Shown in pieces: positions 6,781-28,252 of a stretch of DNA of 64,000 bases (its first letter is position 1; every line of letters begins with the position of its first letter). The notes under the pieces are model-generated. The model searched no databases. It was given only the letters and a program-made list of their open reading frames with translations, and was not told the DNA's origin. The stretch is taken from NCBI GenBank assembly GCA_030041335.1, contig JASHOB010000137.1, positions 1 to 64,000 of the forward strand, given 5' to 3'. A program made the position numbers and the translations under genes. This DNA is from Alphaproteobacteria bacterium. Lineage in GTDB: Bacteria; Pseudomonadota; Alphaproteobacteria; ATCC43930; CGMCC-115725.

Positions 6781-6912
6781 GCCTTCGGAAAAACGGCTCG
6801 GCTCGCGGGCCATCTCTTGATCGAAAGCCAGCGGCGCCGGCGCAAATACGGCGTCGTTGCCATGTGCGTTGCCGGCAGCATGGACGCTGCCGGCCACTCC
6901 GAAGCTATCCAT
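6781..6912 (+). pseudogene. Thiolase C-terminal remnant
   Basis: In one frame the sequence reads GKTARLAGHLLIE, then RRRRKYGVVAMCVAGSMDAA. This resembles the C-terminal signature of acetyl-CoA acetyltransferases (small-residue GAR-L-x-x-L-L, R-R-x-x-x-Y-G-x-x-x-x-C-x-G-G-x-G). The Cys of the second active-site block is present, but the G-H-P-x-G block before it and all of the N-terminal domain are missing. It lies between an SDR and a nitronate monooxygenase, as a thiolase might in a beta-oxidation cluster. The match is short, so this is a cautious call. Confidence 0.45.
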
Positions 6913-6944
6913 CGAGTTGGTCGCAACCGGGTCCGGAGGTTCGT

Positions 6945-7954: not shown

Positions 7955-7973
7955 GCCGCAGGAGGAGGTTAGC

Positions 7974-8744: not shown

Positions 8745-8767
8745 GGCGAGCAGCAGAGGAGCGTCAC

Positions 8768-9469: not shown

Positions 9470-10156
9470 GTCCGGCTATCGCAGCTCCGCATTTCCTCTT
9501 ATTTACCCAATCATCGCATCTCGGGAAGGCGACGATTGCCCTCGCCTTTCGGGCGGAGCGCGTCGGCGTGTCGGCTTCAGCAACAGCACGCCGTACAAGA
9601 CCACTGCTTTCCCGGAAGCGACAAACGCTGACGCCGAGAGCGTAGGGAAACTTGGCGGTATGACTGTGCGGTCAATCGGACAGATCGTGAAACTGCGGCG
9701 CGTCCGCGACAACGTGCCCCTATGTGTCGCCGCTCGAGATACCCTAGTGACTTTGGAGAAGACAACGGCAGTTGTCCGAACGGCTGCGCGAGACACACGC
9801 CTTATGTGACGAACATGGTCATCTTGCCATCACGGCCAGATCGAAAATTGGATCGACGAAGTGAACGGCTGCATGGTTTCTCGCGGAGGCCAGCAGTCAA
9901 AGATGGATTTTAATTAAGATAAATCAATTTTTTACGATAAGTGACCTCAGATTCGACTTTAGCTGTCGATTGATCGCTTCTGGATAGCACATTGGCCAAT
10001 GCAAGCGTGATTTGGCCAATGTATCACCTTCGCAGGCTAGAGCGCCGCCATTGGGCGGCAGCGATTGGATGCGCGGCGCTACTCAAGTCCGTCAACTCAC
10101 ATCTCCTTCGGTTAGTGCTGCGGGCTCCCTCGGGCGCGACATGCTAAACTTCGCGC
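9470..10156. other. Intergenic region upstream of the TIR-WD40 gene
   Basis: No supported gene. The stretch 9900-9970 is clearly AT-rich relative to its surroundings. It is followed by a repeated TTGGCCAATG element and a GCCGCC/GGCGGC hairpin near 10040-10062. This looks like a regulatory region rather than coding DNA. Confidence 0.5.
9992..10021. promoter_or_regulatory. Paired TTGGCCAATG repeats, possible operator
   Basis: TTGGCCAATG occurs at 9992-10001 and again at 10012-10021, exactly 20 bases apart (two helical turns). Each contains the palindrome TTGGCCAA. Two identical palindromic boxes on the same helix face, about 140-165 bases upstream of the TIR-WD40 start, are what a dimeric regulator bound in tandem would need. 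The binding protein is unknown. Confidence 0.4.
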
Positions 10157-14018: not shown

Positions 14019-15359
14019 CTAAGGGACCACTTCCACTTGCTGGGTCGTCGGGATTTCCTTGGCCACCTTGTTGATGTTTATCAGTTGGGTCAGCAACGCG
14101 AGAACCTGGAGCGTCCGGTCTTCGTCCGTCACCGGATGCACGAAATAGGTGGCATCCAGATAGTCGACACTAAACCGGGCACGGTCGGGTTTCGAGCTCA
14201 GATCGATCAATGAATAATGCAGATGCATTTTCACGATCCGCGCCGCTTCGGGATTCCGCAGCAATGCTCCGAGGTACTGAATGATGCCCTCGACCGAGCG
14301 GATGCCAATCGCCCCGAAATCAGCGGGATTGATCTGACTGCCGGCGCTCATGGGAGCGATTTCGGCGTTGCATACACTCTTCCAGGAATCGCGAATTTGG
14401 GCCTCGAACGATGGCATCAGTTGGCGCGCGTTATGCGGCATGGCGGATTTGCTCGATCGGCCGCCGGGCGAGGGCGCTGGCACCCGTGGTGCCAGCATCG
14501 GAAATTGGATTTTGCGCGATCGGACGTCGTCGTCCAGGCCGACCATCGGCAGCGGCACGTTAGCCCTGCAGAATACGATCTCCGGCTCGGCGTTCACCGA
14601 ATAGAGTTGGGCCTTCTCGTCTTTCGGCAGATAGGCAAGACGAAACTTGGCCGGATCGAGCGAGGCCAAAACCTTCAACTCATCGGACTTCGACGAAAAG
14701 GAAATCTGCGGACCAATTGGCATCAGCCGGGTATAGCGGTTCGCCTTTACCACGTGGTTGTCGGCCTCATTGCCGAAAATTTCGTCGATGTACGTTGCGT
14801 ATTGCTCCAAGAGCCTTGGTTGTGTCGGATCATTGAAGTATGTGCCAGGTCGCTGAGACACGGTGTTGGCCGCTCCCGGTCCGGGCTGACCGCTCGCGAT
14901 GTCGACCGTCTGGATCTGCGAGAACAGCAGGAACATGAGCATTTTCTGCGGAATCTCACGGTCGATGTAGTATTTGACCAAGACAGGATCGATCGGTGTC
15001 AGAATGCCTCTAGTGAAGTCCTGCGTGTCAAGTGGGGCGACGTCGAACGACGGACTGGACGAAGCAGCGATGCCGGACATGCCGGTACCGATGGTGGCGC
15101 GCGTCGTCGAATGGTCGAGCGGGCCGACCGGCCAGGTCGTGCCTAGCGATCCGCCCACCGTCATCTGATAGCGGATATCGGAAAGTGAGCTGAAATTGAG
15201 CGGCGCGTAATCGCGCGCGCGCAGGATATTGGTTACCAAACTGACGCCAGTCATTTCCTCATAGGTCTGCGTGTAGTCGGCCGTGGTCGACTTGACAAAA
15301 GTCGCTAGTGAACAGCCCCCGGCAAGTAGTGCGGCAGCAAGTGCCGTAACGATCTTCAT
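14019..15359 (-). CDS. Lipoprotein of unknown function
   Basis: A 446-residue protein whose N-terminus is a clear lipoprotein signal with lipobox LAGGC and Cys16 as the lipidation site. Residue 17 is Ser, so outer-membrane sorting is plausible. The mature protein is soluble-looking. It has an early conserved-looking segment (MTGVSLVTNILRARDYAPL), a helix-rich middle and a C-terminal ALLTQLININK. I do not recognise the family. It is divergent from the GAF gene at 15556 across about 200 bases, and so borders the protease/ABC/cyclase cluster; whether it belongs to that system is uncertain. Confidence 0.75.
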   Translation of the reverse strand: MKIVTALAAALLAGGCSLATFVKSTTADYTQTYEEMTGVSLVTNILRARDYAPLNFSSLSDIRYQMTVGGSLGTTWPVGPLDHSTTRATIGTGMSGIAASSSPSFDVAPLDTQDFTRGILTPIDPVLVKYYIDREIPQKMLMFLLFSQIQTVDIASGQPGPGAANTVSQRPGTYFNDPTQPRLLEQYATYIDEIFGNEADNHVVKANRYTRLMPIGPQISFSSKSDELKVLASLDPAKFRLAYLPKDEKAQLYSVNAEPEIVFCRANVPLPMVGLDDDVRSRKIQFPMLAPRVPAPSPGGRSSKSAMPHNARQLMPSFEAQIRDSWKSVCNAEIAPMSAGSQINPADFGAIGIRSVEGIIQYLGALLRNPEAARIVKMHLHYSLIDLSSKPDRARFSVDYLDATYFVHPVTDEDRTLQVLALLTQLININKVAKEIPTTQQVEVVP

Positions 15360-15555
15360 TCCCCCACCTTGGGAAGACGTTGCGCCACCAATTTATTTAA
15401 AACGTCGGGCTCGGCGCGGTGTAGTTGGTTAATTTGCGGGCTCGCCCCTCGACTCATCCGCACGCTATGATTAGCCTCGCCGTCTTGTCAGGGGATGTTG
15501 GCAGGATACCTGCCTATAAAACTTGGAAAAACTCGGTCCCGCGCCCGGGGGAAAC

Positions 15556-16248
15556 ATGGTCGGCACGCGGTCGCAACGATTAGTTTTCGGCGTGTCCGGT
15601 GCGGCGCCCGAGGCAGTGGAACTGCGATGGCTGCTGGACACTGGCATTCATTTGATCGGCGCCGACGAGGGCTCCCTGCTCGCCTATGATGAGGCGAAGC
15701 GGGCGCTGCGCTTCGTAATGACCGCGGGAAGCCACCGTTCGGAGCAAAAGTTGATCCGTCAAACAGTCCCCCTCAGTCGCGGACTGACCGGACTCGCTGC
15801 GCAATTGCGGGAAGTGCAGGTAGGGACGCCCAAATACCACAAGATTGAGCAGGTCGGACGGCGCGGCACCACGCCGGTCGAGCCCAGCAACGTGATCGCG
15901 GCACCGATGGTGGCCCGCGGCGTCTTGCTCGGAGTCATGACCGCCGTTCGTTTCTCTCCCCATCCCGTCTTCACAATGGAGGAGGGAAAACTGATTGGCC
16001 GCTTTGCGGCGGTCGCCGGCCTCGTTATCGAACAGCATCGCCGGCTCGAGGCATTGGCGGCCAAGGCAAGGGACCGCCCGGCTGTTGGGGCCGGGGTGAC
16101 GGGGGATCGCCATGAGCAAAGGATTCTGGCGGCAATAGCCGAGGTTCGGAGGCACCGGCCGGAGGCGATGGCCCGATTGGCCCGCACTATCGGTAACTTG
16201 GCCGCATTGATCGTTGGCGACGCGCGGGACGCCGATGCAATCCACTGA
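15556..16248 (+). CDS. GAF-domain protein
   Basis: A 230-residue protein. Residues ~15-170 fit a GAF fold: ELRWLLDTGIHLIGADEGSL, then LRFVMTAGS, the VPLSRGLTGLAAQ signature, VIAAPMVARGVLLGVM, and a closing helix through EEGKLIGRFAAVAGLVIEQH. GAF domains bind small ligands such as cyclic nucleotides, tetrapyrroles or metabolites. The remaining ~60 residues are helical, with no recognisable output domain. ATG 15556 is preferred over an in-frame TTG at 15523 because GGGGGAAA sits just before it. Its 3' end overlaps the start of the protease gene by 14 bases, so the two are translationally coupled. Confidence 0.8.
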   Translation: MVGTRSQRLVFGVSGAAPEAVELRWLLDTGIHLIGADEGSLLAYDEAKRALRFVMTAGSHRSEQKLIRQTVPLSRGLTGLAAQLREVQVGTPKYHKIEQVGRRGTTPVEPSNVIAAPMVARGVLLGVMTAVRFSPHPVFTMEEGKLIGRFAAVAGLVIEQHRRLEALAAKARDRPAVGAGVTGDRHEQRILAAIAEVRRHRPEAMARLARTIGNLAALIVGDARDADAIH

Positions 16249-17086
16249 ACTCCGACGGGCACTTGACACGCACATTGGTCGGCTGGCGCGACGCAAGCTC
16301 GCACCGGTCGACGTCGCGGTGATCGACAGCGGCATCGACGCGTCTCACCCCGATTTGGCGGGCCACGTTCATCAAGCGTTTCGCGTCCAATCGGATACGA
16401 CAGGCACCCGCCTCGTTTCGGCGCGAATGGGCGTCAATCAGGATGCGTTTGGCCACGGCACCGCAGTCGCCAGCATTATTCGCCGCGTTGCGCCAAACGC
16501 GCGGCTCATCGATGTCCGGATAGTGAGCGCGGACGAGGTCTTTACCAGCGACGCCCTGATTGCCGGCTTGACCGCGACCGTCGAACAAAGGTGGAAGGTC
16601 GCTAATATAAGTCTAGCCGCGTCGCGGGCGGTCGCGCGCCACTTGATGCCGCTGTGTGAACAGGCGCATTTCCAAGGGCAGGTGCTCGTGGCAGCGCAGC
16701 GCAATTTGGCAATCGAGGACGACGGATATCCGGCTGCATTCTCCTCGGTCTTCGGCGTGACCGCGAAAGATATCCGCGCGACTTACGAATATTTCTTTGA
16801 GGACGGCGCGGCGATCGAATGGCAGGCGGCCGGCGAGAAAATCCCGGTCGCGGCTAGCGGGGGCGGCTATACACTGAAGGCAGGAACCAGCTTCGCCGCG
16901 CCCGCGATCGCAGGCATCTGCGCATTGGTGTTGGGAGCCTTTCCCCGTCTGACGCCTTTCGAGATAAGGACCGTGCTAAAGGCCCATGCCCGGGCCGCGA
17001 CGCCGTCGCGACCCCATCGCGGCAGCCGAACGCACGCGCATCGCGGCAAGCTTCATCACTTCGAGATTAGGAGACACGGTTCATGA
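16235..17086 (+). CDS. Subtilisin-like serine protease (S8)
   Basis: A 283-residue protease with the complete subtilase triad in order: Asp in VAVIDSGID, His in FGHGTAVAS, Ser in AGTSFAAPAIAG. There is no signal peptide and no inhibitory propeptide of normal length (only ~28 residues precede the Asp strand), so it is probably cytoplasmic unless exported by the adjacent ABC protein. The usual oxyanion Asn region reads VLVAAQRN, less canonical than AAGN. The C-terminal ~30 residues are Arg/His-rich and beyond the fold. It overlaps the GAF gene (14 bases) and the next small gene (ATGA), so the order GAF-protease-small protein is one unit. It is a candidate maturation protease for the small protein or for a partner. 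Confidence 0.88.
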   Translation: MQSTELRRALDTHIGRLARRKLAPVDVAVIDSGIDASHPDLAGHVHQAFRVQSDTTGTRLVSARMGVNQDAFGHGTAVASIIRRVAPNARLIDVRIVSADEVFTSDALIAGLTATVEQRWKVANISLAASRAVARHLMPLCEQAHFQGQVLVAAQRNLAIEDDGYPAAFSSVFGVTAKDIRATYEYFFEDGAAIEWQAAGEKIPVAASGGGYTLKAGTSFAAPAIAGICALVLGAFPRLTPFEIRTVLKAHARAATPSRPHRGSRTHAHRGKLHHFEIRRHGS

Positions 17087-17319
17087 CGATCGCGCCTACC
17101 AAGACAAAGCTCATTCCCGCATCGCGGGCTAAGAACCTGAAAAAAGCCGATCAAGGCAAGGCCCTGAAAAACTCGCCGCGGGGTGCGGCGGTTGAGGCCC
17201 AGGAAGGGACCTACAAGCTGGTGACATGTCCTTCGGGCGATATGAATTTCATCGAATACGACCCGAACAAGTATCAGTGGTATCAGTGCACCGTGTGCGG
17301 CTGTTCCTTTGAGATGTAG
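17083..17319 (+). CDS. Small Cys-containing protein, coupled to protease and ABC fusion
   Basis: A 78-residue basic protein. Residues 1-40 are Lys/Ala-rich and probably unstructured. The second half carries Cys49 (TCPSGD) and Cys69, Cys72 and Cys74 (QCTVCGC), ending in a hydrophobic tail. The C-x2-C-G knuckle is zinc-ribbon-like, but the first knuckle has only one Cys. The start overlaps the protease stop (ATGA), and a 33-base gap leads to the ABC fusion gene. Two readings are possible: a small zinc-ribbon partner, or a peptide that is cut by the protease and exported by the ABC protein. No double-glycine leader site is visible, which weakens the second. Family not recognised. Confidence 0.7.
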   Translation: MTIAPTKTKLIPASRAKNLKKADQGKALKNSPRGAAVEAQEGTYKLVTCPSGDMNFIEYDPNKYQWYQCTVCGCSFEM

Positions 17320-17352
17320 TCCGAACGCCGTCGGCGCCGTACCGGGGACGGG

Positions 17353-20300
17353 ATGACCCAGCTGCCGGAGGTCGCCCGCACCGCGCTTGGGCGCGTCGGC
17401 ACGACACAACTCTCAGCCTCTTTGCAACCAGAGCGCCCGTGGTTCTGGCGGGTCGCTGGCGCGGGATGGCGCGTGGTGCGCGACCGACCCGTGTTGTTTT
17501 TCGGCGCGAGCATTCTGCTTCTTATCGTCGACCTGATCGGACTCTACAGCGTGCAACTGTTGTCGTCTTTGACGGCATCTCTGTCGGGACAGGGGACGTC
17601 TGCCGCGAATGTGTTCCATATCTGGGTGCCGAAGGGACCCAAGATCGAGAGTTTGCTGTTCCTGGCGCTGGTGGTTTCGATCGTGGGGCTTCGCATCGTC
17701 CAGCGCCGATTGGCGGCCCGGTCCGAAAACCAAACGCTCGCCGGACTTCGACTGGAAGTGCATAACCGGATCTTGAGTTTGAGCCCCGAATACTACAAGC
17801 GGACCACGCCGGAAAACCTCGAAGGCTTGGTGATGGGCGGCGCGCAAAGGGCGAACTTGCTGTTCCGCCAGTTGATCGCAGCGCCAATAACGCACCTTCT
17901 GCCACTCGGTACCGCCGTATGGCTGATCTACCACAACATCAATGTGGTGAAACAACAGAGCGGATTTGTCCTTCTGCTGTTGCTCTTGGTCCTGATCGCC
18001 CTGCCGGTGATCGGCTGGTTACTTTCCAAACGCGTCGATCGCGCGTTCGGTTACGCCGGGGCACGCGCCGCCGAGCTGACCACGGAAACCGCCAATTCGT
18101 TGTCAAAGCCCGAAGAAGTTCAGTTGATGGACGCGCTGCCGCAGCGCGCGCAGGCCTATCGGATACGACTCGACGAGCAGGCCAAGGCGCAAACTAAAGC
18201 GAGCGCCGATCAGGGATCGGCTGATCAAATCAAGAATGCGGTACAGCCAGTGCTGCAGGCTGTGTTCTTGGTCTATGGTGCCTATGCGGCCTTCGGTAAT
18301 CACGATCCCGCGACGGCAGGTGCCATTATTGGCCTCTACCTCTTCATTCCGCGGGCGATCAATCCTTTGCAGTCCGTTATCGACCTCGTGACTGGCATCA
18401 GCGGTGCCCATTCGACGATCGGCGGCCTGCTCGAAATCTTGGAGAGGGCGCCTCCCATTGTGTCCGAGAGCGGCGGTCTCGCACTCGCGCCGACGGACCG
18501 CTCGGTCACATTCTCAGGCGTCTCCCTGCATTATGACGGCGCCGGCGCACCGGTGTTGGACGACGTGTCGCTGCAGATCGTGCCGGGGAAGATCACCTCG
18601 ATCGTCGGCCGTTCTGGCGCAGGAAAATCGACCGTACTCAATCTCATCGCTGGCCTGGCGATGCCGGACCGGGGAACGATCGCCATCGGGGGAAAGAAGC
18701 TTACCGACATCGCGAGCCAGAGCCTGCGCCGGCAAGTCGTCAAGGTGTCGCAGGATCCACTTCTGATCACCGCCTCGGTGCGCGAGAATTTTCGCCTTGC
18801 CAAGGCCGATGCAAGTGACGCCGAAATCGAGGAAGTATGCCGGAGCACCGGGTTCTGGGAAATTCTGATCGGGCATCAGCCGAGCAACCCGCTCGATTAC
18901 GCGGTCGCACAAAAGTCCTCCGAAGGCCTGTCCGGCGGTGAGAGGCGGTTGTTGGCCTTAACACGCGCGCTATTGCTCAAGCCCAGTGTCCTGTTGCTCG
19001 ACGAGCCGACCACCGGTCTGGACCCCGATGCGCGCAAGAGCTTCGGCGAAATACTGGTCAAGGCATTCACCGACACCACGGTTGTCCTGACCGATCACCA
19101 CATGGAGTTCGTGCGGCATCTGGCGGATGCCGTCCATTGCCTCGATCGCGGCAAGGTGACCAGTTCTGGTCCGCCCGAGGTGTTGCTGGGGCGCAGTTCA
19201 TTGTTCGCTCAGTTGATGCAGGACGAACTCAATCCGATGCGCCGGGCGGAGGCGCAATCGCGGCCACGGGTCGAATGGATCGATTTGGTCAAGAAGGCCG
19301 AAAGCGCCGGAGAGTTTCTGGTCGCGTTCGATCTCGCCAATCATGCGATGGCCGAATTTCCCACGGAGATCGAATTACGATATCTCGCGGTGCGAGCGCT
19401 GGCGCGGAGCGGCGCCACCCAGCTTGCCGCGACTTTGTATGAGAAATTCCACCTGGCGCGCGAGCCGGACGACGACCCAATAGCGCTGGGCGCTCGGATA
19501 CTGAAGGACCAGGCATGGCAAGCAAGCGGTGAAGCGCGGCGTATGCTATTGCGCAAAGCCGCGGAAGCATACGCGGCGATATTCCGGCGCAGCACAAACT
19601 ACTACGTGGGCATTAACGCCGCCACGCTGTTCACCTTGGCCGGCGACACAGACCGGGCAGCGCCTTTCATCGAGGAGACAGCGAAGGCTTGCGAGATAGA
19701 TCATCCGACCAAGCCGCTCGACATCTACTACCTCGAAGCGACGCGCGCGGAACTCGCCCTGTTGCGCGGCGACGTAGCCGAAACGCAGGCGGCGCTAACG
19801 CGCGCCGCACCGCCTGACTTTAGGGACTGGGCGGCGCTGGCGACGACCCGGAAGCAATTGCTGGAGATTTGCCGCTTTCGCGGTTTGCCAGCGGACACGA
19901 TCAAACGGCTGAACTTGCCTCGGATCGTCAACTATGTTGGACACATGATCTCGCCGCCGGGGACGGCAGGCCGGTTTCCCGCAGACCAGGAACCAAAGGT
20001 TGCGCGAGCGATCGCGGATTATCTCGCAGAGAATGAAATCAGCGTCGCCTACGGTTCACTGGCCTGCGGCGCTGACATTCTGTTCGCGGAAGCCCTGTTG
20101 GCGCGCAACGGCGAACTTCATGTCGTGCTGCCGTTCGAACTGGAGGAATTCAAGCGCGTCTCCGTGCTCAGGGGCGGCGAAGGATGGGAGAAACGCTTCG
20201 ACGATTGTCTCGCGCGCGCCCGGTCCGTGCGCTATGCGACCGAGGATGCGTATCTCGGCGACGACAGCCTGTTCCCCTATGCCACACGTCTGGCCATGGG

Positions 20301-21042
20301 GCTTGCCATTCTCCGGTCGCAGAATCTCGGTGCGGAGGTCAACCAAGTCGCCGTCTGGGACAGGGCGCCACCGACTGGCCTCGCCGGTACCGCCGTGGAT
20401 GTCGCCTATTGGCGTAGTAAGGGTCGCCGCACGGATGTCATTCCAGTGACACCTTTCCCCGGGTTCGTCGCCGCCGCTGCCGCGTCCGCCGCTCGTGCCG
20501 GTGCAATGCCGCCTCGCCGAACTCACGCGTTGCTGTTCGGTGATTTTCATGGCTACAGCACGCTGCGCGACCGCGACATCGCCGCGTTCCAGCAGACTTT
20601 CATGAAAGCGGTGGCAGAAATTCTCGAGCAATTCGGTGCCGGCGTTCAATACCGCAATACTTGGGGTGACGCGATCTATGTCGTAATGGACGGTGTCGTC
20701 GAAGCCGCGCGGTGCGCCTTGGCGATCCGAGATTGCATCGCCCAGCGTGACCGCGGCGACTTGGCGGTGCGGCCGGAACTGCGGCTCGCTGGCCATTTCG
20801 GTCCCACCTTCGAGGGCTACGACGCCGTCCGGGGCGAGCCGACCTATTTCGGCGCCCAGGTGACGCGCGCGGCCCGCCTCGAACCCGTGACGCCAACCAA
20901 TTTGGTCTATGTCACCGAGCCGTTCGCCGCCGCATTGTTGCTGGAAAACGCAACCCAGTTCTCTTGCGACTATGTTGGGCAGCTCCCGGCGGCAAAGAAC
21001 TACGGTACGATGCCCATGTACATGCTGCGTGCGGCGTCCTGA
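17353..21042 (+). CDS. ABC exporter - TPR-like - SLOG-like - class III cyclase-like fusion
   Basis: A 1,229-residue multidomain protein. Residues ~40-370 are an ABC-exporter membrane domain with about six hydrophobic segments. Residues ~385-620 are the nucleotide-binding domain: Walker A GRSGAGKST (419-427), signature LSGGE (526-530), Walker B with Asp550-Glu551. Residues ~640-850 are helical repeats (TRAFs-binding/TPR-like). Residues ~860-1040 are a Rossmann-like segment with GSLACGAD (901-908) and ELHVVLPFE, resembling SLOG/LOG nucleotide-binding domains. Residues 1055-1229 are a class III nucleotide-cyclase fold with both metal Asp positions (Asp1064, Asp1106) and Arg1175. The purine-selecting Lys and Asp are replaced by Asn1102 and Thr1164, and the transition-state Asn by Thr1171. 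Substrate and even activity are therefore open. I know of no standard family with this exact order. Confidence 0.88.
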   Translation: MTQLPEVARTALGRVGTTQLSASLQPERPWFWRVAGAGWRVVRDRPVLFFGASILLLIVDLIGLYSVQLLSSLTASLSGQGTSAANVFHIWVPKGPKIESLLFLALVVSIVGLRIVQRRLAARSENQTLAGLRLEVHNRILSLSPEYYKRTTPENLEGLVMGGAQRANLLFRQLIAAPITHLLPLGTAVWLIYHNINVVKQQSGFVLLLLLLVLIALPVIGWLLSKRVDRAFGYAGARAAELTTETANSLSKPEEVQLMDALPQRAQAYRIRLDEQAKAQTKASADQGSADQIKNAVQPVLQAVFLVYGAYAAFGNHDPATAGAIIGLYLFIPRAINPLQSVIDLVTGISGAHSTIGGLLEILERAPPIVSESGGLALAPTDRSVTFSGVSLHYDGAGAPVLDDVSLQIVPGKITSIVGRSGAGKSTVLNLIAGLAMPDRGTIAIGGKKLTDIASQSLRRQVVKVSQDPLLITASVRENFRLAKADASDAEIEEVCRSTGFWEILIGHQPSNPLDYAVAQKSSEGLSGGERRLLALTRALLLKPSVLLLDEPTTGLDPDARKSFGEILVKAFTDTTVVLTDHHMEFVRHLADAVHCLDRGKVTSSGPPEVLLGRSSLFAQLMQDELNPMRRAEAQSRPRVEWIDLVKKAESAGEFLVAFDLANHAMAEFPTEIELRYLAVRALARSGATQLAATLYEKFHLAREPDDDPIALGARILKDQAWQASGEARRMLLRKAAEAYAAIFRRSTNYYVGINAATLFTLAGDTDRAAPFIEETAKACEIDHPTKPLDIYYLEATRAELALLRGDVAETQAALTRAAPPDFRDWAALATTRKQLLEICRFRGLPADTIKRLNLPRIVNYVGHMISPPGTAGRFPADQEPKVARAIADYLAENEISVAYGSLACGADILFAEALLARNGELHVVLPFELEEFKRVSVLRGGEGWEKRFDDCLARARSVRYATEDAYLGDDSLFPYATRLAMGLAILRSQNLGAEVNQVAVWDRAPPTGLAGTAVDVAYWRSKGRRTDVIPVTPFPGFVAAAAASAARAGAMPPRRTHALLFGDFHGYSTLRDRDIAAFQQTFMKAVAEILEQFGAGVQYRNTWGDAIYVVMDGVVEAARCALAIRDCIAQRDRGDLAVRPELRLAGHFGPTFEGYDAVRGEPTYFGAQVTRAARLEPVTPTNLVYVTEPFAAALLLENATQFSCDYVGQLPAAKNYGTMPMYMLRAAS

Positions 21043-21583
21043 ACGGTCCAAGGCACGCCCCGTTGTCCGATACCTGAGCTCGGTAAGCCCGACCCCATAA
21101 AGGAACGGGATTCGCCATAAGCATCTTGGGTCGCACGGTCACGAGCGCCTCGTGGCGCCCGTGGTCAAGGCGCGGGGGCGGTGCGCTGAATGTCTCCATA
21201 CGACCACATGCATCGGAACAACCCAAGCGAGCATAACCGAGTGGCTTGCCGGCACTTTGCGAGAAGAATTGACGTGCTACACCACCATTTGCCGGGCCGC
21301 GGGAACGGCCGAGCGCCGGCTCAATAATCGCCATGATTGCGAGAGGCCCCAAAGCTGCTGAACCGACTCCTTAACGCCTTTGAGGATGAACGCCGCCATT
21401 TTTCCATTTATTTTTCTAACGTCATGCACCTTGAGAGATTTTCAGCTGATGGGCTGTGGCTGATCGCTTCCGGAGGGCAAAGTCCATCCAAATGGTGCCT
21501 TGGACGAGAGCGCACTTAAGCCATAGGCTGAGATCAGGATGATGGTTCAGATCAGTATGCCTTAGGGGGTCAGCGAGGGGGCG
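21043..21583. other. Intergenic, nothing recognised
   Basis: About 540 bases between two large signalling genes. No frame has family-like sequence. An AT-richer patch at 21395-21425 could hold a promoter, but no clear -35/-10 pair is seen. Confidence 0.4.
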
Positions 21584-24500
21584 GTGCGGGTCTTCGTCAG
21601 CCACAGTACGGGCGATCACGAAAAGGCTCGGTCGGTTGAGGCGGCGCTCAGGGCGCGCCTGCCGGGCCACGAATGGTTCCTCGCGCCGCGCAATGTCGGC
21701 GGCGGCGCGTGGTGGGTGCCGAAACTGGCTACCGAGATCGCCGACAGCGATGCCGTGCTGTTCCTCGCCGGTCAAAGGATTGGCCCGTGGCAACAGCTCG
21801 AATATTACGAAGCATTGCGCCTGTCCCGGGAGCACGCCGGCCGCCCGAGGCTCATCCCCGTGGTGATCGCCGACCAGGCACCGGGCCTGCCGTTCTTTGC
21901 GCAACTGCATCACATCTTCGCCACCGATCCGACGGAGCGCGAGACCCTCAGCGCGATCGAGCGGGCGCTCGACGACACACTTCCGGCAGACGCAACACCG
22001 GCGTGGCGGCGCTTCCAGCCCTATAAGGGCTTGCCGGCCCTCGAAGAGGCCGATGCCGCCTTCTTCTTCGGCCGCAATGCCGAGACGGCGGCGATCCTAG
22101 ATCGGATGGCGCACCATCCCGACCGCATCGTCACCCTGATCGGCGATTCTGGGGTCGGCAAATCCTCGCTCGCCCGCGCCGGCGTCCTGGCCCGGCTGAA
22201 GTCGCAGCTGTGGCCGATCGAAACCGGCACCTGGCCGGCAGCGCTGGCCGACAGTCGCGCCTTTCTGCCACTGGTCGTTCGCCCGGGCGAGGAACCGCTG
22301 AAGGAATTGGCACGCGAGATCGCCCGGCTTTACACGCCGCGCAGCTACGAGCTTGACGAGGAAGCTGCGGGCTGGGCGCGACGCTTCGCCGACGGATCGG
22401 GGCTCCACGACCTGCTGCGCGCGGCTCGAGACAAGCTCGCTGAAGCGCTGGCCGCGGAGCCGCCGAAGCGGTTCGTCATCTATCTCGACCAGGGCGAGGA
22501 ACTCTACACTCGAGCCAAGCCCGACGAGGCGCGCCGTTTCTCCGAAGTAGTTGCCGAGGCCGCCGGCCACGAGTCGTTCTCGGTATTGCTGAGCCTGCGC
22601 AACGATTACTACTCGGCCTGGCAGAAGGACCGCGCCCTGTTCGGCATCGCCGAGCATGTCGACGTGCTGGCGCCGGCGGCTGGGACATTGGGCGAGATCA
22701 TCTACCGGCCGGCGGAGATGCTGAAGGCGCGTTTTGAGAGCAGCGAGATCGTCGAGCGCGCCGCCGACGCCACCGAGCGCGAGCCCGGCAGCCTGCCGTT
22801 GCTGTCAGACCTGCTACACGAGATGTGGGTCAACATGCAGGCGCGTGGCGATGGTGAGTTGCGCTGGGCCGACGTGCCCGGGATCATCGACGTCGCGGCA
22901 CCCTTGCGCCGCCGCGCCGAGGCATTTCTCGCCGACCCGGCCAATGACGCCGCCGTGGTGCGCCGCCTGTTCACGCTGCGCCTGGCGCAAGTGCCCGAGA
23001 TCGGTGAGCCGGTGCGCCGGCGCGCGCACCGCAGCGAATGCAGCGATGCCGAATGGGCGGCGGCGGAAAAACTCGCCGGCCAGGCGTGGCGCCTGCTAAC
23101 CCTGGCGCAGACTGCCGATGGCACTCCGGTCGTCGAAGTCGCACACGAGCAATTGCTGCGGCGCTGGCCGCGCCTCAAATCCTGGCTCGACGAAGAACGC
23201 GAGTTCCTAGTCTGGAGGGGCCAGCTCGAGCGCGAAGTCGCCCGGCGCGACCCCGAGCTTTTGACAGGGCGGCGGCTGGCCGTGGCACGTGGTTGGTTCG
23301 AGCGCCGCGCGGCCGATCTCGCGCCCGGCGCCCGCCAGTTCGTCTCTGTCTCGCTCGCGGCCGACCAACGGCGCCGACGTTTCGCGTTTTCCGCGGTTTC
23401 CGCGGCTTTAGGCGTGTTTGTGATCCTTTCGGCGTTTGCCGGCTGGAAGTGGTACGACGCCGATGCCCAAAGGAAGGACGTTGAGGCGCAAAGGAAGCTC
23501 GCTGAGGCGCAGACCAAGCAAGCACGGCTCGAGCGCGCGCGCGCCGAGCATAGCCTCGCCCTCGCAACGCAGACCGCCGACGCGCTGATCTTCGACATAG
23601 TGCAGAAAATCCGGAACGCGGCCGGTGTGCCGACGGCCACAATCGAAGGGATTCTCGACAGTACCCGCAAGCTTCAGGAGCAACTGTCTGCCTACGGCGA
23701 AAACTCGCCAGGGCTGCGTCGTAGTCAGGCGGCAGCAGAAATGGAGCGTTCAAACACCTTGCTGGCGGCCGGCGATAGGCGCGGCGCCCTCGCGGCGGCG
23801 CAGCGATCCCGAGCAATCCTGGAAGCCTTGCTGAAATCGGCTCCCGCCAGCACCGACTACCAACGGGAGCTGTCTGTATCCTATGAGAAGGTCGGAGACG
23901 TGCTGGTGGCACAGGGCAATCTGTCCGACGCGCTCAAATCCTACCACGATGCACTGGTGATCAGAGACCGGTTGGCCAAGTCCGACCCCCGCAACGCCGG
24001 CTGGAAAGACGATCTCGCAGTGTCTTATGGGAAGGTCGGGGACGTGCTGGCGACACAGGGCAAGCTGCCCGAGGCGCTGCAATATTATCGGGCAGAACTC
24101 GCGATGGCCGAACCGCTAGCTAGGTCTGACCCCGGCAACGCCGCCGTGCAAGGCCATCTAGCAGTGTCCTATGAGAGGGTCGCAGATGTGCTGGCGGAGC
24201 AGGGCAATTTGCGCGATGCACTCAAATCCTACCGCGACGAACTGGCGATCATAGACCGGCTTGCCAAGTTGGACCCTGGCAACGCCAGCTGGCAGCGCAG
24301 TGTTTCGGTGTCAGAAAACAAGGTCGGAGACGTGCTTGTGGCACAGGGCAATCTGTCCGAGGCGCTAAACTCCTACCGCGATGGGCTGGCGATCATAGAC
24401 CGGCTAACCAAGTCTGACCCTGGCAACGCGAGTTGGCTTAGCGATCTGTCTGTGTCCGATGAGGACGTCGCGGACGTACTGGTGGCGCAGGGCAATCTGC

Positions 24501-25351
24501 CCGAGGCGCTAAAATCCTATCTGGGAGCGCTCTCGATAACCGAACGGCTGGCCAAATCCGACCCCGGCAACGCCGGCTGGCAGCGCAGTCTGTCGGTGTC
24601 CTACAATAAGGTAGGAGATGTGCGGGAGGCGCAGGGCAATCCGTCCGAGGCGCTGAAATCCTATCTGGCAGCGCTCTCGATAATCGAACGGCTGGCCAAG
24701 TCCGACCCCGGCAATGCCGCCTGGCAGCGCGATCTGTCGGTGTCATATGAACTGGTCGGCAATGTACTCGTGGCCCAGGGCAATCTGCCCGAGGCGCTGA
24801 ATTCCTACCGTTACGCGCTGGCGATCAGGGACCGGCTGGCCAAGTCCGATCCCGGCAACGCCGGCTGGCAGCGCGATCTGTCGGTGTCCTATGAGAAGGT
24901 CGGGAATGTGCAGGTGGCGCAGAGCAATCTGCCCGAGGCGTTGAAATCCTACCGCGACGCGCTGGCGATCAGGGACCGGCTGGCCAATGCCGGCCCCGGC
25001 AACGCCGGCTGGCAACGTGATCTTTCGGTGTCCTATGAGAAGGTCGGGAATGTGCTGGTGGCACAAGGCAATCTGCCCGAGGCGCTGAAATCCTACCGGG
25101 CAGACCTCGCGATAGCCCAGCGGCTGGCCAAGTCCGATCCCGGGAACCCCAGCTGGCAGCGTGATTTGGCGGTGTCCTATGCGCAGTACAGCAGCCTATC
25201 TCAAAGATTGGGCAACAAGTTGGAGGCCATGATCATGTTGACCAAAGGTCGGACCATAATGGCCCGCCTCTGTCAAATCTCTCCTGACAACGCCCGATGG
25301 CGACAGGATCTCGCTTGGTTCGACCAACAACTGCAATCACTAGACAAATAG
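21584..25351 (+). CDS. TIR - STAND ATPase - TM - TPR protein
   Basis: A 1,255-residue protein. A TIR-like domain (1-135) begins RVFVSHSTGD and has Trp69-x-x-x-Glu73 at the catalytic position. FQPYKGLPALEEADAAFFFG then introduces an nSTAND1-type NTPase with Walker A GDSGVGKSS (187-195) and a Walker B-like VIYLDQGEEL, followed by a winged-helix-like region to ~580. One TM helix lies at about 598-620, next to a Lys/Ala-rich coiled coil (620-665). From residue ~763 come nine 48-residue TPR-like repeats and a tenth, diverged one. STAND proteins switch between ADP-closed and ATP-open oligomers when the repeat sensor binds a trigger. With TIR as output this is the layout of NLR-like bacterial immune sensors. 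The GTG start has GAGGGG just upstream. Role in defence is inference. Confidence 0.92.
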   Translation: MRVFVSHSTGDHEKARSVEAALRARLPGHEWFLAPRNVGGGAWWVPKLATEIADSDAVLFLAGQRIGPWQQLEYYEALRLSREHAGRPRLIPVVIADQAPGLPFFAQLHHIFATDPTERETLSAIERALDDTLPADATPAWRRFQPYKGLPALEEADAAFFFGRNAETAAILDRMAHHPDRIVTLIGDSGVGKSSLARAGVLARLKSQLWPIETGTWPAALADSRAFLPLVVRPGEEPLKELAREIARLYTPRSYELDEEAAGWARRFADGSGLHDLLRAARDKLAEALAAEPPKRFVIYLDQGEELYTRAKPDEARRFSEVVAEAAGHESFSVLLSLRNDYYSAWQKDRALFGIAEHVDVLAPAAGTLGEIIYRPAEMLKARFESSEIVERAADATEREPGSLPLLSDLLHEMWVNMQARGDGELRWADVPGIIDVAAPLRRRAEAFLADPANDAAVVRRLFTLRLAQVPEIGEPVRRRAHRSECSDAEWAAAEKLAGQAWRLLTLAQTADGTPVVEVAHEQLLRRWPRLKSWLDEEREFLVWRGQLEREVARRDPELLTGRRLAVARGWFERRAADLAPGARQFVSVSLAADQRRRRFAFSAVSAALGVFVILSAFAGWKWYDADAQRKDVEAQRKLAEAQTKQARLERARAEHSLALATQTADALIFDIVQKIRNAAGVPTATIEGILDSTRKLQEQLSAYGENSPGLRRSQAAAEMERSNTLLAAGDRRGALAAAQRSRAILEALLKSAPASTDYQRELSVSYEKVGDVLVAQGNLSDALKSYHDALVIRDRLAKSDPRNAGWKDDLAVSYGKVGDVLATQGKLPEALQYYRAELAMAEPLARSDPGNAAVQGHLAVSYERVADVLAEQGNLRDALKSYRDELAIIDRLAKLDPGNASWQRSVSVSENKVGDVLVAQGNLSEALNSYRDGLAIIDRLTKSDPGNASWLSDLSVSDEDVADVLVAQGNLPEALKSYLGALSITERLAKSDPGNAGWQRSLSVSYNKVGDVREAQGNPSEALKSYLAALSIIERLAKSDPGNAAWQRDLSVSYELVGNVLVAQGNLPEALNSYRYALAIRDRLAKSDPGNAGWQRDLSVSYEKVGNVQVAQSNLPEALKSYRDALAIRDRLANAGPGNAGWQRDLSVSYEKVGNVLVAQGNLPEALKSYRADLAIAQRLAKSDPGNPSWQRDLAVSYAQYSSLSQRLGNKLEAMIMLTKGRTIMARLCQISPDNARWRQDLAWFDQQLQSLDK
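23870..25165 (+). repeat. Nine 144-bp tandem repeats encoding TPR-like units
   Basis: The unit begins CTG/CTC-TC-GTG-TC and encodes the pattern L-S-V-S-Y-x-K-V-G-D-V-L-V-A-Q-G-N-L. Consecutive units start exactly 144 bases apart (23870, 24014 and so on) for nine copies; a diverged tenth runs to the stop. Units 5-9 are the most alike at DNA level, suggesting recent expansion or gene conversion. All keep frame, so copy-number change would lengthen or shorten the sensor without breaking the gene. Confidence 0.9.
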
Positions 25352-25599
25352 ATTGCCGTCGCGCCGAACGGTACTCGCCGCCCGAGCGACCGGGCTTGAC
25401 CGGGCCGAGCGGCATCCCACTCACCTATCGCTCCATAGCGAAGACAAAGGGGAAAAATGTGTGCTCCCTGCCGGTCCCCTCCGAGCGCGATGCCCGTCGC
25501 CGCGGTCGGGCGGGAACCGAGCCGTAATATGGCGCGGAGAGTGGTGGTATTTTCGATACGACCACAACTGATGAGGTCCCGGGGAAGCGGAGGGTTCGG

Positions 25600-26709
25600 A
25601 TGACGCAAGGGCGCGACGAGCCAGCGGGTCAACATCGGTTCAATACCGATCTCTTGGTCAATCCCGGTGATCTCGAAACCGCGCGGCAAGCATTTCCGCA
25701 AACGTTTCACGTCCTCGACCACGCTGCGCTGCGAGCGGCCTTTCTGCGCTACGACCGACCGGCCAACGCGGCCAAGAGGCGGGGCCGAATGGCAGGATTG
25801 CTGGCGATCGGCTTCGGTATGATTGCGCTTTTCACCGCCGCGGCCTCTCCGAGCGCCCGTTGGCAAGGCATCCTTGCCGCCGTTTGCGGGCTGATTTCCA
25901 TTACCGTTGGGCTGGGCGGAGTGCTTTACGCGGGTGCCAAGCGGCGCTGGCTTCTAAACCGCATCGCCACCGAACGCTTGCGCCAATACCACTTCCAAGC
26001 CTTTGTGTGCCGGTGGCGTGCGATCGCCGCCTCTTTCGTCAGCGGCGAAGCGGCCGGGGCCTATGCCGACGAGCGGGAAATCGGATTGCATCGCCTGATA
26101 ACGCGCTATCCGGGCCAACTGGATTCGGAGCTCACCGACCTCCTCGAAGACGAAAGCAATGCCCAATGCTGGCTGCACCAGCAGCAGCCGCTGCCTGCTG
26201 ACGATGAAACCATTCCCGACCTCGAAGAACTCTTTGTCGCCTATCGCGAACTGCGGATTAAACATCAGCTCGACTACGCCAATTACAAATTGCGCAGCGA
26301 GCAGAACCCGTTTGCTTGGTCGCTCCGCCTGCAAGAGGTGATTTTTTCCTATACGAGCTTGATTTGTATTTTGGTGATTTTCGCAATTCATCTGTGGATT
26401 GCGGCTTGGCTGTCGTGGGTAGGGCATGCCGAACAGCTTCGGCTGCTCGGGTTCGACATCCATGTCTGGGTAATCTGGATCGCGATTCTGGTCCTCGGGC
26501 TTCGTGCTTTGCAGGAGGGACTCCGGCCCGGGCGTGAGATCGAACGCTACCGCCATTATCGCGCTGGGGTGCGCGCTGTGCGCGACCGCTTCGACCAAGC
26601 GCAATTCACCGCCGAGAAGCTTGAAATCATGCAGGAGATGGAGCGGCTCTCCTTCGACGAATTCCGCAACTTCCTCCGTTCCTGCAACGACGCCCGCTTT
26701 ATCATTTAA
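25600..26709 (+). CDS. Four-TM membrane protein with SLATT-like features
   Basis: A 369-residue protein. A soluble start leads to FHVLDHAALRAAFLRYD, then a TM pair at ~65-110 (LLAIGFGMIALFTAAAS; ILAAVCGLISITVGLGGVL). A basic, aromatic stretch with WLLNRIATERLRQYHF follows. The middle is cytoplasmic (~130-245), a second TM pair lies at ~255-310, and the C-terminal helix is charged. The TM-hairpin followed by R-x-x-x-E-R-L-R-x-x-x-F resembles the SLATT (SMODS- and SLOG-associating 2TM) effector family, which are proposed pore-formers triggered by nucleotide signals. This would fit the SLOG-like and cyclase-like domains upstream. The family call is from pattern only. GGAGGG precedes the ATG, 248 bases after the TIR-STAND gene. 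Confidence 0.75.
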   Translation: MTQGRDEPAGQHRFNTDLLVNPGDLETARQAFPQTFHVLDHAALRAAFLRYDRPANAAKRRGRMAGLLAIGFGMIALFTAAASPSARWQGILAAVCGLISITVGLGGVLYAGAKRRWLLNRIATERLRQYHFQAFVCRWRAIAASFVSGEAAGAYADEREIGLHRLITRYPGQLDSELTDLLEDESNAQCWLHQQQPLPADDETIPDLEELFVAYRELRIKHQLDYANYKLRSEQNPFAWSLRLQEVIFSYTSLICILVIFAIHLWIAAWLSWVGHAEQLRLLGFDIHVWVIWIAILVLGLRALQEGLRPGREIERYRHYRAGVRAVRDRFDQAQFTAEKLEIMQEMERLSFDEFRNFLRSCNDARFII

Positions 26710-27110
26710 CGTCTTCCCGCCCTTAAGGGTTGGGATTTCTGCCAGCAGCGGCTGACGTTCCAGCCCGAGAAGTAGGTTGAGGCAGCGTTGGAATCCCGGT
26801 CATCGACGACAACGCACGCACTGCAAGCCCACTCTGTCATTCGCAGACCTGCGATACCGGGGCCGCTGCGTGCACCGCACGCAGGACAGGTCGCGGAACG
26901 CCCACGTTCGTTGGCCTCGACATATTGCGCGCCCCGTGCCTCATGACTTGAAGCGGAGCATTTGCCGAAAACTGGACCACGACGCATCAAGAACGGACTT
27001 GGCCATTCTTGGTTTGCGTCGTTTTCCCAGCCTTCACGTCGCCGACCACGATCACCTGTAGGTGATGTCGGAGGGCATTGGTGACCTTCGCATGGATCAC
27101 CCGTGCCCGG
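26706..27110 (-). pseudogene. TnpB (IS200/IS605-type) C-terminal remnant
   Basis: On the minus strand the sequence contains, in pieces and different frames, IVVGDVKAGK, MAKSVLDASWSSFRQMLRFK, VEANERGRSATCPACGARSG, and REW-like TEWACSAC with DDRDSNAA. These match the end of the RuvC II region, the zinc-finger (C-x2-C ... C-x2-C) and the final D-R-D-x-N-A-A of RuvC III in TnpB proteins. At least two frameshifts separate the pieces, and a stop follows FKS. No intact transposase, tnpA or element end was found. It is a dead insertion-element fragment. Confidence 0.8.
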
Positions 27111-27151
27111 TTCTCGTAGAGCGGCACCAATCCCACATAAGCCTCCTCGGA

Positions 27152-27450
27152 TTACCAGCCATCCGTATCCGTGCCGGCGGTCAACCAATTGAAGCCGAGT
27201 GCCTCGATGAACGTGTCGAGATCGGCTTTGTGATGGCTCGAATACGTCCGTGACAGATCGGCGATAGCAACCGGACCCGACCCGCCATCGTTCTGGTATT
27301 TCTTTGACGGTATGACGCCGAGCGCCTGGCACATATCTTCTTGATGGATGCGCGCGATGCCGTTGCCCTCCGCCAGCAGTCCAAGTTTGTAGACGAGGCC
27401 AGATAAGAATACTCGTTCTCGGCATGACCGAAATGGCGGTTGCCGGCTTC
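27152..27450 (-). pseudogene. HipA-family toxin kinase remnant
   Basis: Minus-strand translation shows RHFGHAENEYSYL in one frame. After a shift it shows LVYKLGLLAEGNGIARIHQE, DMCQALGVIPSKKYQNDGG and FIEALGFNWLTAGTD. The RxHQED-x-CQALG ... KYQ-x-x-GG ... N-W-L-x-A-G-T-D chain is the signature of HipA serine/threonine kinases, the toxin part of HipBA. The sequence stops just where the catalytic D-A-H-x-K-N should follow (TDTDGW, stop), and the N-terminal lobe is missing. No hipB is seen. It abuts the TnpB remnant, suggesting past insertion or deletion. Confidence 0.75.
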
Positions 27451-28252
27451 ATGATCTGGGTTGTTGCAATTCGCAAGGGTGCCGATACCGGCATTGTCGA
27501 TGGGGCGACCATGTCGTCGTCGCCCGGGAACGTATTACAAGCGCCTTGCCGAACGTGCGGCGGCGGCGCCGCGAGCGTAGAACAAGCGACGAGCGGCATG
27601 ACGGCCAACAGGAAGAAGCCCACCGCTCCTGGGGGAGGTTGCGGTGGGCCCTTTACTAATCGTCGACGATTGAACGATGTTTCCCCGAGGAACCCATGGG
27701 ACCGCTGGCGGTACCTACCTGCGATCGGATCAACGTTACCGCCCCGCAGCCGGTGATCAAAGGCAATAAGAGGCATTATCCACAGATTAATGAACGAGTA
27801 AGATACTTGGGCCGTTTGTATCCAGGGCGTCCGACGGCGTCAGTCCTTTTTAGTACAAAAAAGGAACGCCAAGGCTTCTATGCAATCGATCCAACAGCGA
27901 TCGCGACCGAGCGCAACGCGGAGCGATATTTGCGGAGCGCATCGGCGTCGCGCCCGCGATCGAATCGGGTGCGATTGCCAATACCAGGACGTGCGCCAAA
28001 GGCCACAGGCGAGCATATCGGCGCAAACCGCTGCCTCATGCTGTAACACGGGCTGCCGAGCTTGCCCGCGACCCTGCACTTCTGCTTCGTCGCGGTCGCT
28101 GACGCTCAAGGCTTCGTCCACCCGTTCGCAGCTGCGAGTGGCTGCCCGGAGGCAGGGCGCCGCCTATCAAGAGGTGACAATATGATGGCCGGGCGACGTG
28201 GACAGCACGCGTTAAGCTTCGTCCGTTTGGGGATTGGTCGGCAGCAGTGTAA
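27451..28252. other. No intact gene
   Basis: No supported gene in about 800 bases between the HipA remnant and the next small gene. A minus-strand frame (27655 to 27437) has a lipoprotein-like FFLLAVMPLVACSTL, but it merges into the HipA remnant and lacks a convincing remainder. An AT-rich strip lies at 27760-27800. Confidence 0.4.
27618..27649. terminator. Hairpin, possible terminator
   Basis: A perfect 9-bp stem, GCCCACCGC at 27618-27626 with GCGGTGGGC at 27641-27649, and a 14-base loop. Both flanks are only mildly T-rich on their respective 3' sides (CCTTTACT on plus, TTCTTCCTG on minus). It could serve the remnant genes around it; no live gene ends right here. Confidence 0.3.

What the first reader, a model, noticed from the sequence alone, without database searches (positions are those of the whole stretch)
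15556..26709. Candidate undescribed signalling/conflict system: GAF, subtilisin, small Cys protein, ABC-SLOG-cyclase fusion, TIR-STAND-TPR, SLATT-like membrane protein
Six plus-strand genes in a row combine sensor (GAF, TPR repeats), protease, a small Cys-rich protein, nucleotide-signal domains (SLOG-like, class III cyclase-like), NAD-targeting TIR and a possible pore-forming SLATT-like protein. The first three overlap or abut, and the fourth starts 33 bases later. Seen: domain motifs and overlaps. Known: SLOG, SLATT, TIR and STAND domains are recurrent in prokaryotic immunity. Inferred: the genes work as one nucleotide-signal-driven defence or self/non-self module. The gaps of 541 and 248 bases mean the last two genes may be separately transcribed.
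Basis: partly seen in the sequence, partly recalled or inferred. Interest (0 to 1): 0.85.

Follow-up and report, generated by a model that had tools for sequence, protein, structure and literature searches.

The report
Cyclase sensor wired to peptide export
A rare bacterial gene cluster joins a protease, a small cysteine-bearing protein and an export pump to a sensor that probably makes a cyclic-nucleotide signal, next to an immune-receptor-like gene, which suggests that bacteria may use alarm-signal chemistry to control release of a small protein.

Summary
The first four form a conserved unit. GAF, S8 protease and ABC exporter recur in this order in 8 alphaproteobacterial genomes: this genus, Zavarzinia and a 'Candidatus Odyssella' MAG. 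In the MAG one run of genes reads cyclase-GAF-S8-small Cys protein-ABC-CRP. In this window the cyclase protein is fused to the exporter instead. Its TPR part resembles the ASK1 regulatory region (Z 19.4). Separately, this protein lies within about 0.55 kb of a rare nSTAND1 receptor gene in 5 of 28 loci, window included, so the TIR-STAND link is supported. SLATT is weakly supported. Best reading: S8 trims and the exporter secretes the small protein, as QhpE/QhpF do for QhpC, under cyclic-nucleotide control; the TIR-STAND is a second partner of the cyclase. Cargo, nucleotide and any anti-phage role are untested. No description was found in the open-access papers searched. New variant of a known kind.

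The parts
15556..16248 (+). GAF-domain protein (230 aa), first gene of the cassette
   Evidence: GAF_2 above cut-off; 84% identical in G002, 42-44% in three Zavarzinia genomes, 45% over 162 aa in the Odyssella MAG; dN/dS 0.085
16235..17086 (+). Subtilisin-like S8 protease, predicted cytosolic (no N-terminal hydrophobic segment); Asp-His-Ser motifs intact
   Evidence: Peptidase_S8 86 bits; closest curated models are mycosin and QhpE (97.7 and 97.3 bits, both below cut-off); D31, H74, S219 invariant in 7 sequences, window included; hydropathy
17083..17319 (+). 78-aa protein with a C-terminal Cys motif (CPSG...CTVCGCS), zinc-ribbon-like; candidate S8 substrate and exporter cargo
   Evidence: 85% identical in G002; relative in the same place in L052, 25% over 64 aa, pairwise E 6e-4, 0 of 5000 shuffles score as high; dN/dS 0.098
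17353..19227 (+). ABC exporter part of the fusion (residues 1 to about 625)
   Evidence: ABC_tran 110.6 bits; type I secretion / CydDC / MsbA-type NCBIfam hits, those shown all below their cut-offs; hydrophobic segments; 33-35% identical to the separate ABC of Zavarzinia and L052
19267..19902 (+). TPR-S sensor part of the fusion (helical, ASK1-regulatory-region-like)
   Evidence: PF20308 47.1 bits; AlphaFold2 model mean pLDDT 87.9; matches 5ulm at Z 19.4, rmsd 2.9 over 220 residues
19921..20445 (+). SLOG-like alternating alpha/beta domain with YGSLAxGAD
   Evidence: Model secondary structure; G286, D288, E293 invariant in 14 sequences; weak DprA hit; no SLOG profile hit
20506..21033 (+). Class III nucleotide cyclase domain; two metal Asp, Lys and Arg kept, Asn replaced by Thr/Ser
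   Evidence: PDB profile hits, fold Z about 19-22, residues in 14 of 14
21584..25351 (+). TIR - nSTAND1 NTPase - one TM - TPR array; second recurrent partner of the cyclase protein
   Evidence: TIR_2 and nSTAND1 above cut-off; hydrophobic segment 599-622; nSTAND1 next to the cyclase gene in 5 of 28 loci
23870..25181 (+). 144-bp (48-aa) TPR repeat array, 9.1 copies, 76% match
   Evidence: Tandem Repeats Finder
25600..26709 (+). Membrane protein with about four TM segments, weakly SLATT/DUF4231-like; membership in the system unproven
   Evidence: SLATT_1 E 0.0017 and DUF4231 E 0.006, both below cut-off; hydrophobic segments

Best explanation
Two modules share one signalling protein. (1) An export cassette: GAF protein, cytosolic S8 protease, small Cys protein, ABC exporter. 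The protease cuts an N-terminal leader from the small protein and the exporter moves the C-terminal Cys part across the inner membrane. (2) A control protein, TPR-S - SLOG-like - class III cyclase, senses a cell-state cue through its TPR-S/SLOG part, with GAF as a second sensor, and makes a cyclic mononucleotide. In Zavarzinia and the Odyssella MAG a CRP-type regulator next to it reads that signal. In this genome the cyclase protein is instead fused to the exporter, which would couple sensing to export directly. The neighbouring TIR-nSTAND1-TM-TPR receptor is a separate, recurrent partner of the cyclase protein and probably the cell-damaging arm or a second sensor of the same stress. Shown: gene order, recurrence, predicted domain folds, kept catalytic residues, selection on the small gene. 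Inferred: leader cleavage, export, signal direction, nucleotide, stress or defence role.
For: GAF-S8-ABC order in 8 genomes of three lineages. One six-gene run, cyclase-GAF-S8-Cys-ABC-CRP, in L052. The cyclase protein is present in 6 of 8 cassette genomes; the 2 without it are drafts whose cassette contig ends inside ABC. Background: 25 of 372 class genomes, 4 of them cassette genomes. CRP lies directly upstream of the cyclase in 4 of 4 Zavarzinia loci. The CRP has cNMP_binding above cut-off and its best solved relatives are Crp/Fnr-family regulators, E. coli CAP among the hits. Published precedent: QhpE cleaves the leader of QhpC before export by QhpF (PMC7876137, passages). S8 matches 215 of the 219 positions of the QhpE model. 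nSTAND1 lies next to the cyclase in 5 of 28 loci although it is rare.
Against: In 5 of 5 Zavarzinia cassettes no small Cys gene was seen between S8 and ABC, which abut or overlap where read. One of them, G306, has an 85-aa CPWCG...CGHCG protein divergent from GAF (L044 9321-9575) that aligns end to end with the Odyssella small protein, only modestly (45 of 5000 shuffles score as high); it was not found in the other fetched Zavarzinia loci. Its classical zinc-ribbon pattern favours a zinc-ribbon reading of the small protein. CRP is not local in the window; the nearest homologue is 37-39% identical on another contig. In 2 of 4 Zavarzinia genomes with the cyclase it lies away from the cassette. 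The ABC-cyclase fusion is seen in one genome only; G001 and G002 contigs end before they can show it. The small protein's structure could not be predicted (pLDDT 50.8). The cyclase lacks the usual transition-state Asn (Thr/Ser in 14 of 14).
Confidence: 0.47

Rival explanations
1. One six-gene anti-phage defence system: infection sensed by GAF/TPR, cyclase makes a signal, TIR depletes NAD and the SLATT-like protein opens the membrane.
For: Cyclase-nSTAND1 linkage in 5 of 28 loci; DUF4231/weakly SLATT-like gene 9 nt after the cyclase in G001; a TIR gene, a DUF4062-STAND gene and an RyR fusion at other cyclase loci.
Against: No STAND or SLATT-like homologue by tblastn in the Zavarzinia and Odyssella cassette loci; gaps of 541 and 248 nt; SLATT below cut-off; PADLOC profiles hit mostly generic ATPase, subtilase, TIR-like, TPR and repeat models plus weak candidate hits, with no complete system apparent; export genes have no place in this scheme.
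Confidence: 0.2
2. A quinohemoprotein-amine-dehydrogenase-like maturation operon or other enzyme-cofactor export route: the small protein is an enzyme subunit, and the cyclase merely regulates.
For: S8-small Cys protein-ABC exporter is the qhpE-qhpC-qhpF logic; S8 hits the QhpE model at 8e-28.
Against: No radical-SAM QhpD over cut-off in any of 7 cassette genomes searched (G784 not searched); QhpE score 97.3 of 165 needed.
Confidence: 0.08
3. The small Cys protein is not cargo but a zinc-ribbon regulator or adaptor of the protease, and the ABC exports something else (lipid, peptide, polysaccharide).
For: Weak zinc-ribbon-type hits (rubredoxin, RpoM-like 7oqy; E 0.4-0.8); CxCG...CxCG in L052 and CPWCG...CGHCG in the G306 protein, which is divergent from GAF rather than between S8 and ABC; Zavarzinia keeps S8 and ABC without a gene between them.
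Against: Its position between S8 and ABC in two lineages; N-terminal half predicted with low confidence (residues 1-34 pLDDT under 50) as expected of a leader.
Confidence: 0.23

Closest known systems
QHNDH maturation operon (QhpE protease, QhpC small Cys subunit, QhpF exporter)
   Same: Cytosolic S8 protease, small Cys-bearing protein and ABC exporter as a set
   Different: No QhpD radical SAM enzyme over cut-off in 7 genomes; GAF, cyclase and CRP instead; S8 below the QhpE cut-off
Nucleotide-signal conflict systems with cNMP cyclase, SLOG, TIR and STAND-type domains (eLife 2020, PMC7159879, passages seen; the 2015 NAR paper recalled, not held)
   Same: Signal-making enzyme plus NTPase/TIR and repeat sensors
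   Different: A passage there says most of those systems show no sign of secreting their effectors; here a protease-exporter cassette is the conserved partner
Pycsar (pyrimidine cyclase with CNBD effector; PMC11224242, passages)
   Same: Class III-type cyclase near TIR and membrane proteins
   Different: No cNMP-binding domain hit in the window's TIR or membrane protein; cyclase sits behind TPR-S and SLOG-like domains
NHLM-type bacteriocin export with a cNMP-binding partner (TIGR03896; association recalled)
   Same: cNMP-binding protein tied to peptide export; the CRPs hit this model weakly
   Different: No C39 peptidase seen; S8 protease and cyclase instead; ABC below the NHLM cut-offs

Membership tests
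QHNDH (qhp) operon | Radical SAM maturase QhpD (TIGR03906) in the genome | tested here: not met
   0 of 7 cassette genomes over cut-off; one sub-threshold hit in G000
QHNDH (qhp) operon | S8 protease passing the QhpE equivalog cut-off | tested here: not met
   97.3 bits against 165
Peptidase family S8 | Profile match and Asp-His-Ser triad | tested here: met
   86.1 bits; D31, H74, S219 invariant in 7 sequences
Class III nucleotide cyclase | Fold and two metal-binding Asp | tested here: met
   Predicted fold, Z about 19-22; Asp in 14 of 14 at both places
Class III nucleotide cyclase | Transition-state Asn and Arg | tested here: inconclusive
   Arg in 14 of 14, Asn replaced by Thr/Ser in 14 of 14
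Class III nucleotide cyclase | Cyclase activity | not testable with these tools
   Needs a biochemical assay
TPR-S (PF20308) | Profile above curated cut-off | tested here: met
   47.1 bits against 27.6
SLOG superfamily | Match to a SLOG profile or fold | tested here: inconclusive
   No SLOG profile hit; DprA E 0.056; the domain was not searched as a separate model
nSTAND1 STAND NTPase | Profile above cut-off | tested here: met
   247.1 bits against 27.1
SLATT | Profile above curated cut-off | tested here: not met
   SLATT_1 18.3 of 41, DUF4231 17.4 of 24.7
Pycsar | Effector with a cyclic-nucleotide-binding domain in the locus | tested here: not met
   No cNMP_binding hit among the 9 window proteins (for P0010 only 25 of 59 hits shown); found as CRP in relatives
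IetAS anti-phage system | S8 passing the IetS cut-off | tested here: not met
   18.2 of 900 bits; the AAA partner IetA was not sought

The most novel reading that the evidence does not exclude
A nucleotide-gated protein-release alarm: cyclase signalling triggers S8 maturation and ABC export of a small Cys protein, which the TPR array of the TIR-nSTAND1 receptor, predicted to lie beyond its TM on the outer face of the inner membrane, reads as a self or neighbour signal, so that export, cyclic nucleotide and TIR-driven cell suicide form one circuit.
Probability: 0.11. Interest if true: 0.92.

Novelty: new variant of a known kind. Interest (0 to 1): 0.67.

Why it matters
It would link two fields that are mostly treated apart: nucleotide-second-messenger conflict systems, whose effectors mostly act inside the cell, and protease/ABC systems that mature and export small proteins. 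The cyclase protein carries an ASK1-like sensor region, so it would also give a bacterial setting in which that kind of sensor can be studied. The parts can be tested one by one, also in named Zavarzinia strains.

Tried and rejected
Small Cys protein elsewhere: only G000 and G002 among 39 family genomes, only G000 among 385 class genomes, no match in 72,556 plasmid records. The Odyssella relative was found by position, not by search, so these searches miss divergent members. On re-checking I saw an 85-aa Cys protein in G306 that I had first passed over; one search tested it (45 of 5000 shuffles as good against the Odyssella protein, 114 of 5000 against the window's).

S8 of the cassette type: among 289 class genomes only G000 and three genomes of one genus (Zavarzinia) score below 1e-60; among 398 phylum genomes G000 and G084; among 96 relatives of G782 G782 and G837 (same contig number and coordinates as G084). 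The cassette is rare in these samples. The one named-genome scan used two GAF peptide patterns, so more divergent cassettes can be missed.

Structure of the small protein: pLDDT 50.8, Foldseek nothing at E<=0.001; not used. SLOG by fold: the list is filled by cyclases, so the middle domain was not tested alone. P0006 against the G001 SLOG/SLATT-type protein: BLASTP E 0.076, not enough for homology. Rfam: 0 matches at gathering threshold. ARAGORN: no tRNA. Promoter scan: 0 found against 2.7 expected, uninformative.

CRP in the window's genome: E 2.1e-57 hit on contig C51, but no GAF, S8, small Cys, ABC or cyclase homologue in the 14 kb around it; treated as a general relative.

nSTAND1 base rate: 15 matches in 11 of 28 genomes at E<=1e-10. 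The tool scored at most 46 candidates per genome, so counts are lower bounds; the adjacency was noticed before the rate was measured. My rough estimate is that even ten times more nSTAND1 genes would leave about 0.3 adjacencies expected in 28 loci.

Literature: searches listed no paper whose title or abstract start describes this cassette; I opened passages of four papers only. The library lacks most subscription papers, and the NAR 2015 SLOG/SLATT paper is not held.
Full report
Observation. The six ORFs, their spacing and most domain calls are right. The large fusion is better described as ABC exporter - TPR-S - SLOG-like - class III cyclase. TPR-S (PF20308) scores 47.1 bits against a cut-off of 27.6. 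The window lies in a 5.17-Mb, 262-contig genome; genomes reached from the same cassette are titled Alphaproteobacteria bacterium, Zavarzinia and 'Candidatus Odyssella'.

The cyclase protein is usually free-standing. Searching its 609-residue part found homologues at E below 1e-50 in 9 of 61 genomes, the window's own included, and in 25 of 372 class genomes. In the other loci where its N-terminal side could be read it is a protein of about 590-820 residues without an ABC part, with an RyR domain in front in L113. A 14-sequence alignment gave a model with mean pLDDT 87.9 and pTM 0.87: helices from 19 to 230, alternating strands and helices 237-411, then the cyclase from about 432. The helical part matches the ASK1 central regulatory region (5ulm, Z 19.4, rmsd 2.9, 220 residues) and the last part matches class III cyclases (Z 18.9-21.7 in the rows shown). 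Both metal Asp, the Lys and the Arg are kept in 14 of 14 sequences. The usual Asn is Thr or Ser in 14 of 14, and the base-selecting Asp position is Thr, Gly, Asn or Ile (residue roles are recalled, positions were read from the alignment to 3mr7). Activity is plausible but not shown, and the nucleotide is open.

The GAF-S8-ABC cassette is conserved and tied to the cyclase protein. Eight genomes carry it: G000 (window), G002, Z. aquatilis (G210), G306, Z. marina (G084), two Zavarzinia MAGs (G783, G784) and the Odyssella MAG (G782). GAF is 42-44% and S8 42-44% identical between this window and Zavarzinia, and ABC 33-35%. The ABC gene runs off the contig in G002 and G784. A small Cys gene sits between S8 and ABC in 3 of 8 (G000, G002, G782). 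In the Zavarzinia loci none was seen there; G306 alone has an 85-aa CPWCG...CGHCG protein divergent from GAF (L044 9321-9575), a modest match to the Odyssella protein (45 of 5000 shuffles as good) and a weaker one to the window's (114 of 5000). The cyclase protein is found in 6 of 8. It is fused in G000, in the same run of genes in G782, about 1.9-2.3 kb downstream in G084 and G306, and on another contig in G210 and G783. G002 and G784 gave none.

A cyclic-nucleotide reader is present in relatives. A CRP-type protein lies directly upstream of the cyclase gene in 4 of 4 Zavarzinia loci, including the two away from the cassette. It closes the gene run in the Odyssella MAG (L052 6565-7269). It has cNMP_binding and HTH_Crp_2 domains, and its best solved relatives are Crp/Fnr-family regulators, with E. 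coli CAP also hit. A Thr-Ser pair (residues 143-144 of the L052 CRP) may lie where E. coli CRP has its adenine-reading Ser; PMC11224242 (passages) names S128, but I did not check the register against E. coli CRP. The window has no local CRP found; a 37-39% identical one lies on contig C51.

The small protein is real: dN/dS against G002 is 0.098 over 78 codons, with 24 of 38 differences at third positions. It aligns to the Odyssella small protein better than any of 5000 shuffles, pairwise E 6e-4, with shared Cys in the C-terminal half. In the qhp operon, QhpE cuts a 28-residue leader from QhpC in the cytoplasm before export through QhpF (PMC7876137, passages). The parallel of S8, small Cys protein and ABC suggests the same logic, but QhpD is absent over cut-off and S8 fails the QhpE cut-off, so this is a likeness of function, not membership. 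The Cys patterns also fit a zinc ribbon, so an adaptor role is a live rival.

The STAND gene is a second partner of the cyclase protein. Among 28 cyclase loci whose flanks I read (window, L024-L031, L044, L045, L052, L063, L064, L101-L114), an nSTAND1 gene lies beside it in 5: the window (541 nt, same strand), L027 (157 nt, divergent), L101 (4-nt overlap, same strand), L106 (divergent, start codon uncertain, open frames nearly abut) and L107 (17 nt, convergent). Seven loci (L024, L026, L028, L030, L104, L105, L110) show less than about 1.3 kb on one side because the contig ends. nSTAND1 is rare: 15 matches in 11 of 28 genomes, and in G000, G034, G354, G134 and G163 the one beside the cyclase is the only match reported. 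Counts are lower bounds because the tool scored at most 46 candidates per genome. The partners begin with TIR (window), a TIR-like N-terminus by eye (L107), DUF4062 (L027, below the Pfam cut-off) or similar N-termini by eye (L101, L106), and end with TPR or WD40 repeats. L025 has a TIR gene and L113 a DUF4062-STAND gene nearby, and L024 a DUF4231 gene 9 nt downstream. G002 has an nSTAND1/TPR-like gene by tblastn 3.4 kb from the cassette on the other side. In Zavarzinia, G084 and G306 nSTAND1 genes lie far from the cassette, G210 and G783 gave none, and G782 gave none. So the STAND goes with the cyclase, not with the protease-exporter set.

Mechanism. Best reading (0.47): GAF and TPR-S/SLOG sense a state, the cyclase makes a cyclic mononucleotide, CRP (or, here, direct fusion) passes it to a maturation-export unit for the small protein, and the TIR-STAND receptor is a linked alarm arm. 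In the STAND protein one hydrophobic segment separates TIR-nSTAND1 from a 9-copy, 76%-match TPR array, so the array may face the periplasm. That permits, but does not show, the bold circuit in the section on the most novel reading. The SLATT-like gene is left out: its profile scores fail, and tblastn found no homologue at the other loci (at thresholds from 1e-6 to 1; the only hit, E 0.36, is not significant).

Verdict. A conserved, rare and, in the papers I could search, undescribed combination built from known domain kinds. It is a new variant of a known kind, worth bench work, with defence function unproven.

Noticed in passing
10157-12970: TIR-like - hydrophobic segment - WD40-repeat protein (937 aa) about 2.6 kb upstream of the cassette, similar in layout to the STAND-TPR receptor without the NTPase (WD40; ThsB/TIR-like hits; the hydrophobic segment is by eye).
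   Followed up: partly
14019-15359: Minus-strand gene without any Pfam hit, conserved next to the cassette in G002 (shared block 14020-18784 is 78.7% identical; dN/dS 0.136); its N-terminus looks by eye like a lipoprotein signal.
   Followed up: partly
L031 (G055) 6349-11915: Cyclase gene flanked by a protein that looks P450-like by eye and carries two CRP-like stretches, and by a gene that looks patatin-like by eye; another setting in which its signal may be read.
   Followed up: no
L113 (G224) 7967-10354: Cyclase-family protein with an N-terminal RyR domain in place of the ABC part, near a DUF4062-STAND gene.
   Followed up: partly
L043, L044, L045, L050, L051: Zavarzinia ABC proteins carry a Pro/Gly-rich N-terminal extension of roughly 100 residues; a large protein of about 920-1050 aa with no clear Pfam family (two examples) lies upstream of the cassette.
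   Followed up: partly
L044 9321-9575: 85-aa zinc-ribbon-type protein divergent from GAF in G306, a modest match to the Odyssella small Cys protein; not found in the other fetched Zavarzinia loci.
   Followed up: partly
26706-27776: Minus-strand 356-aa ORF that overlaps the end of the membrane-protein gene by 4 nt; its composition looks unlike a real protein by eye and it is probably not a gene.
   Followed up: no
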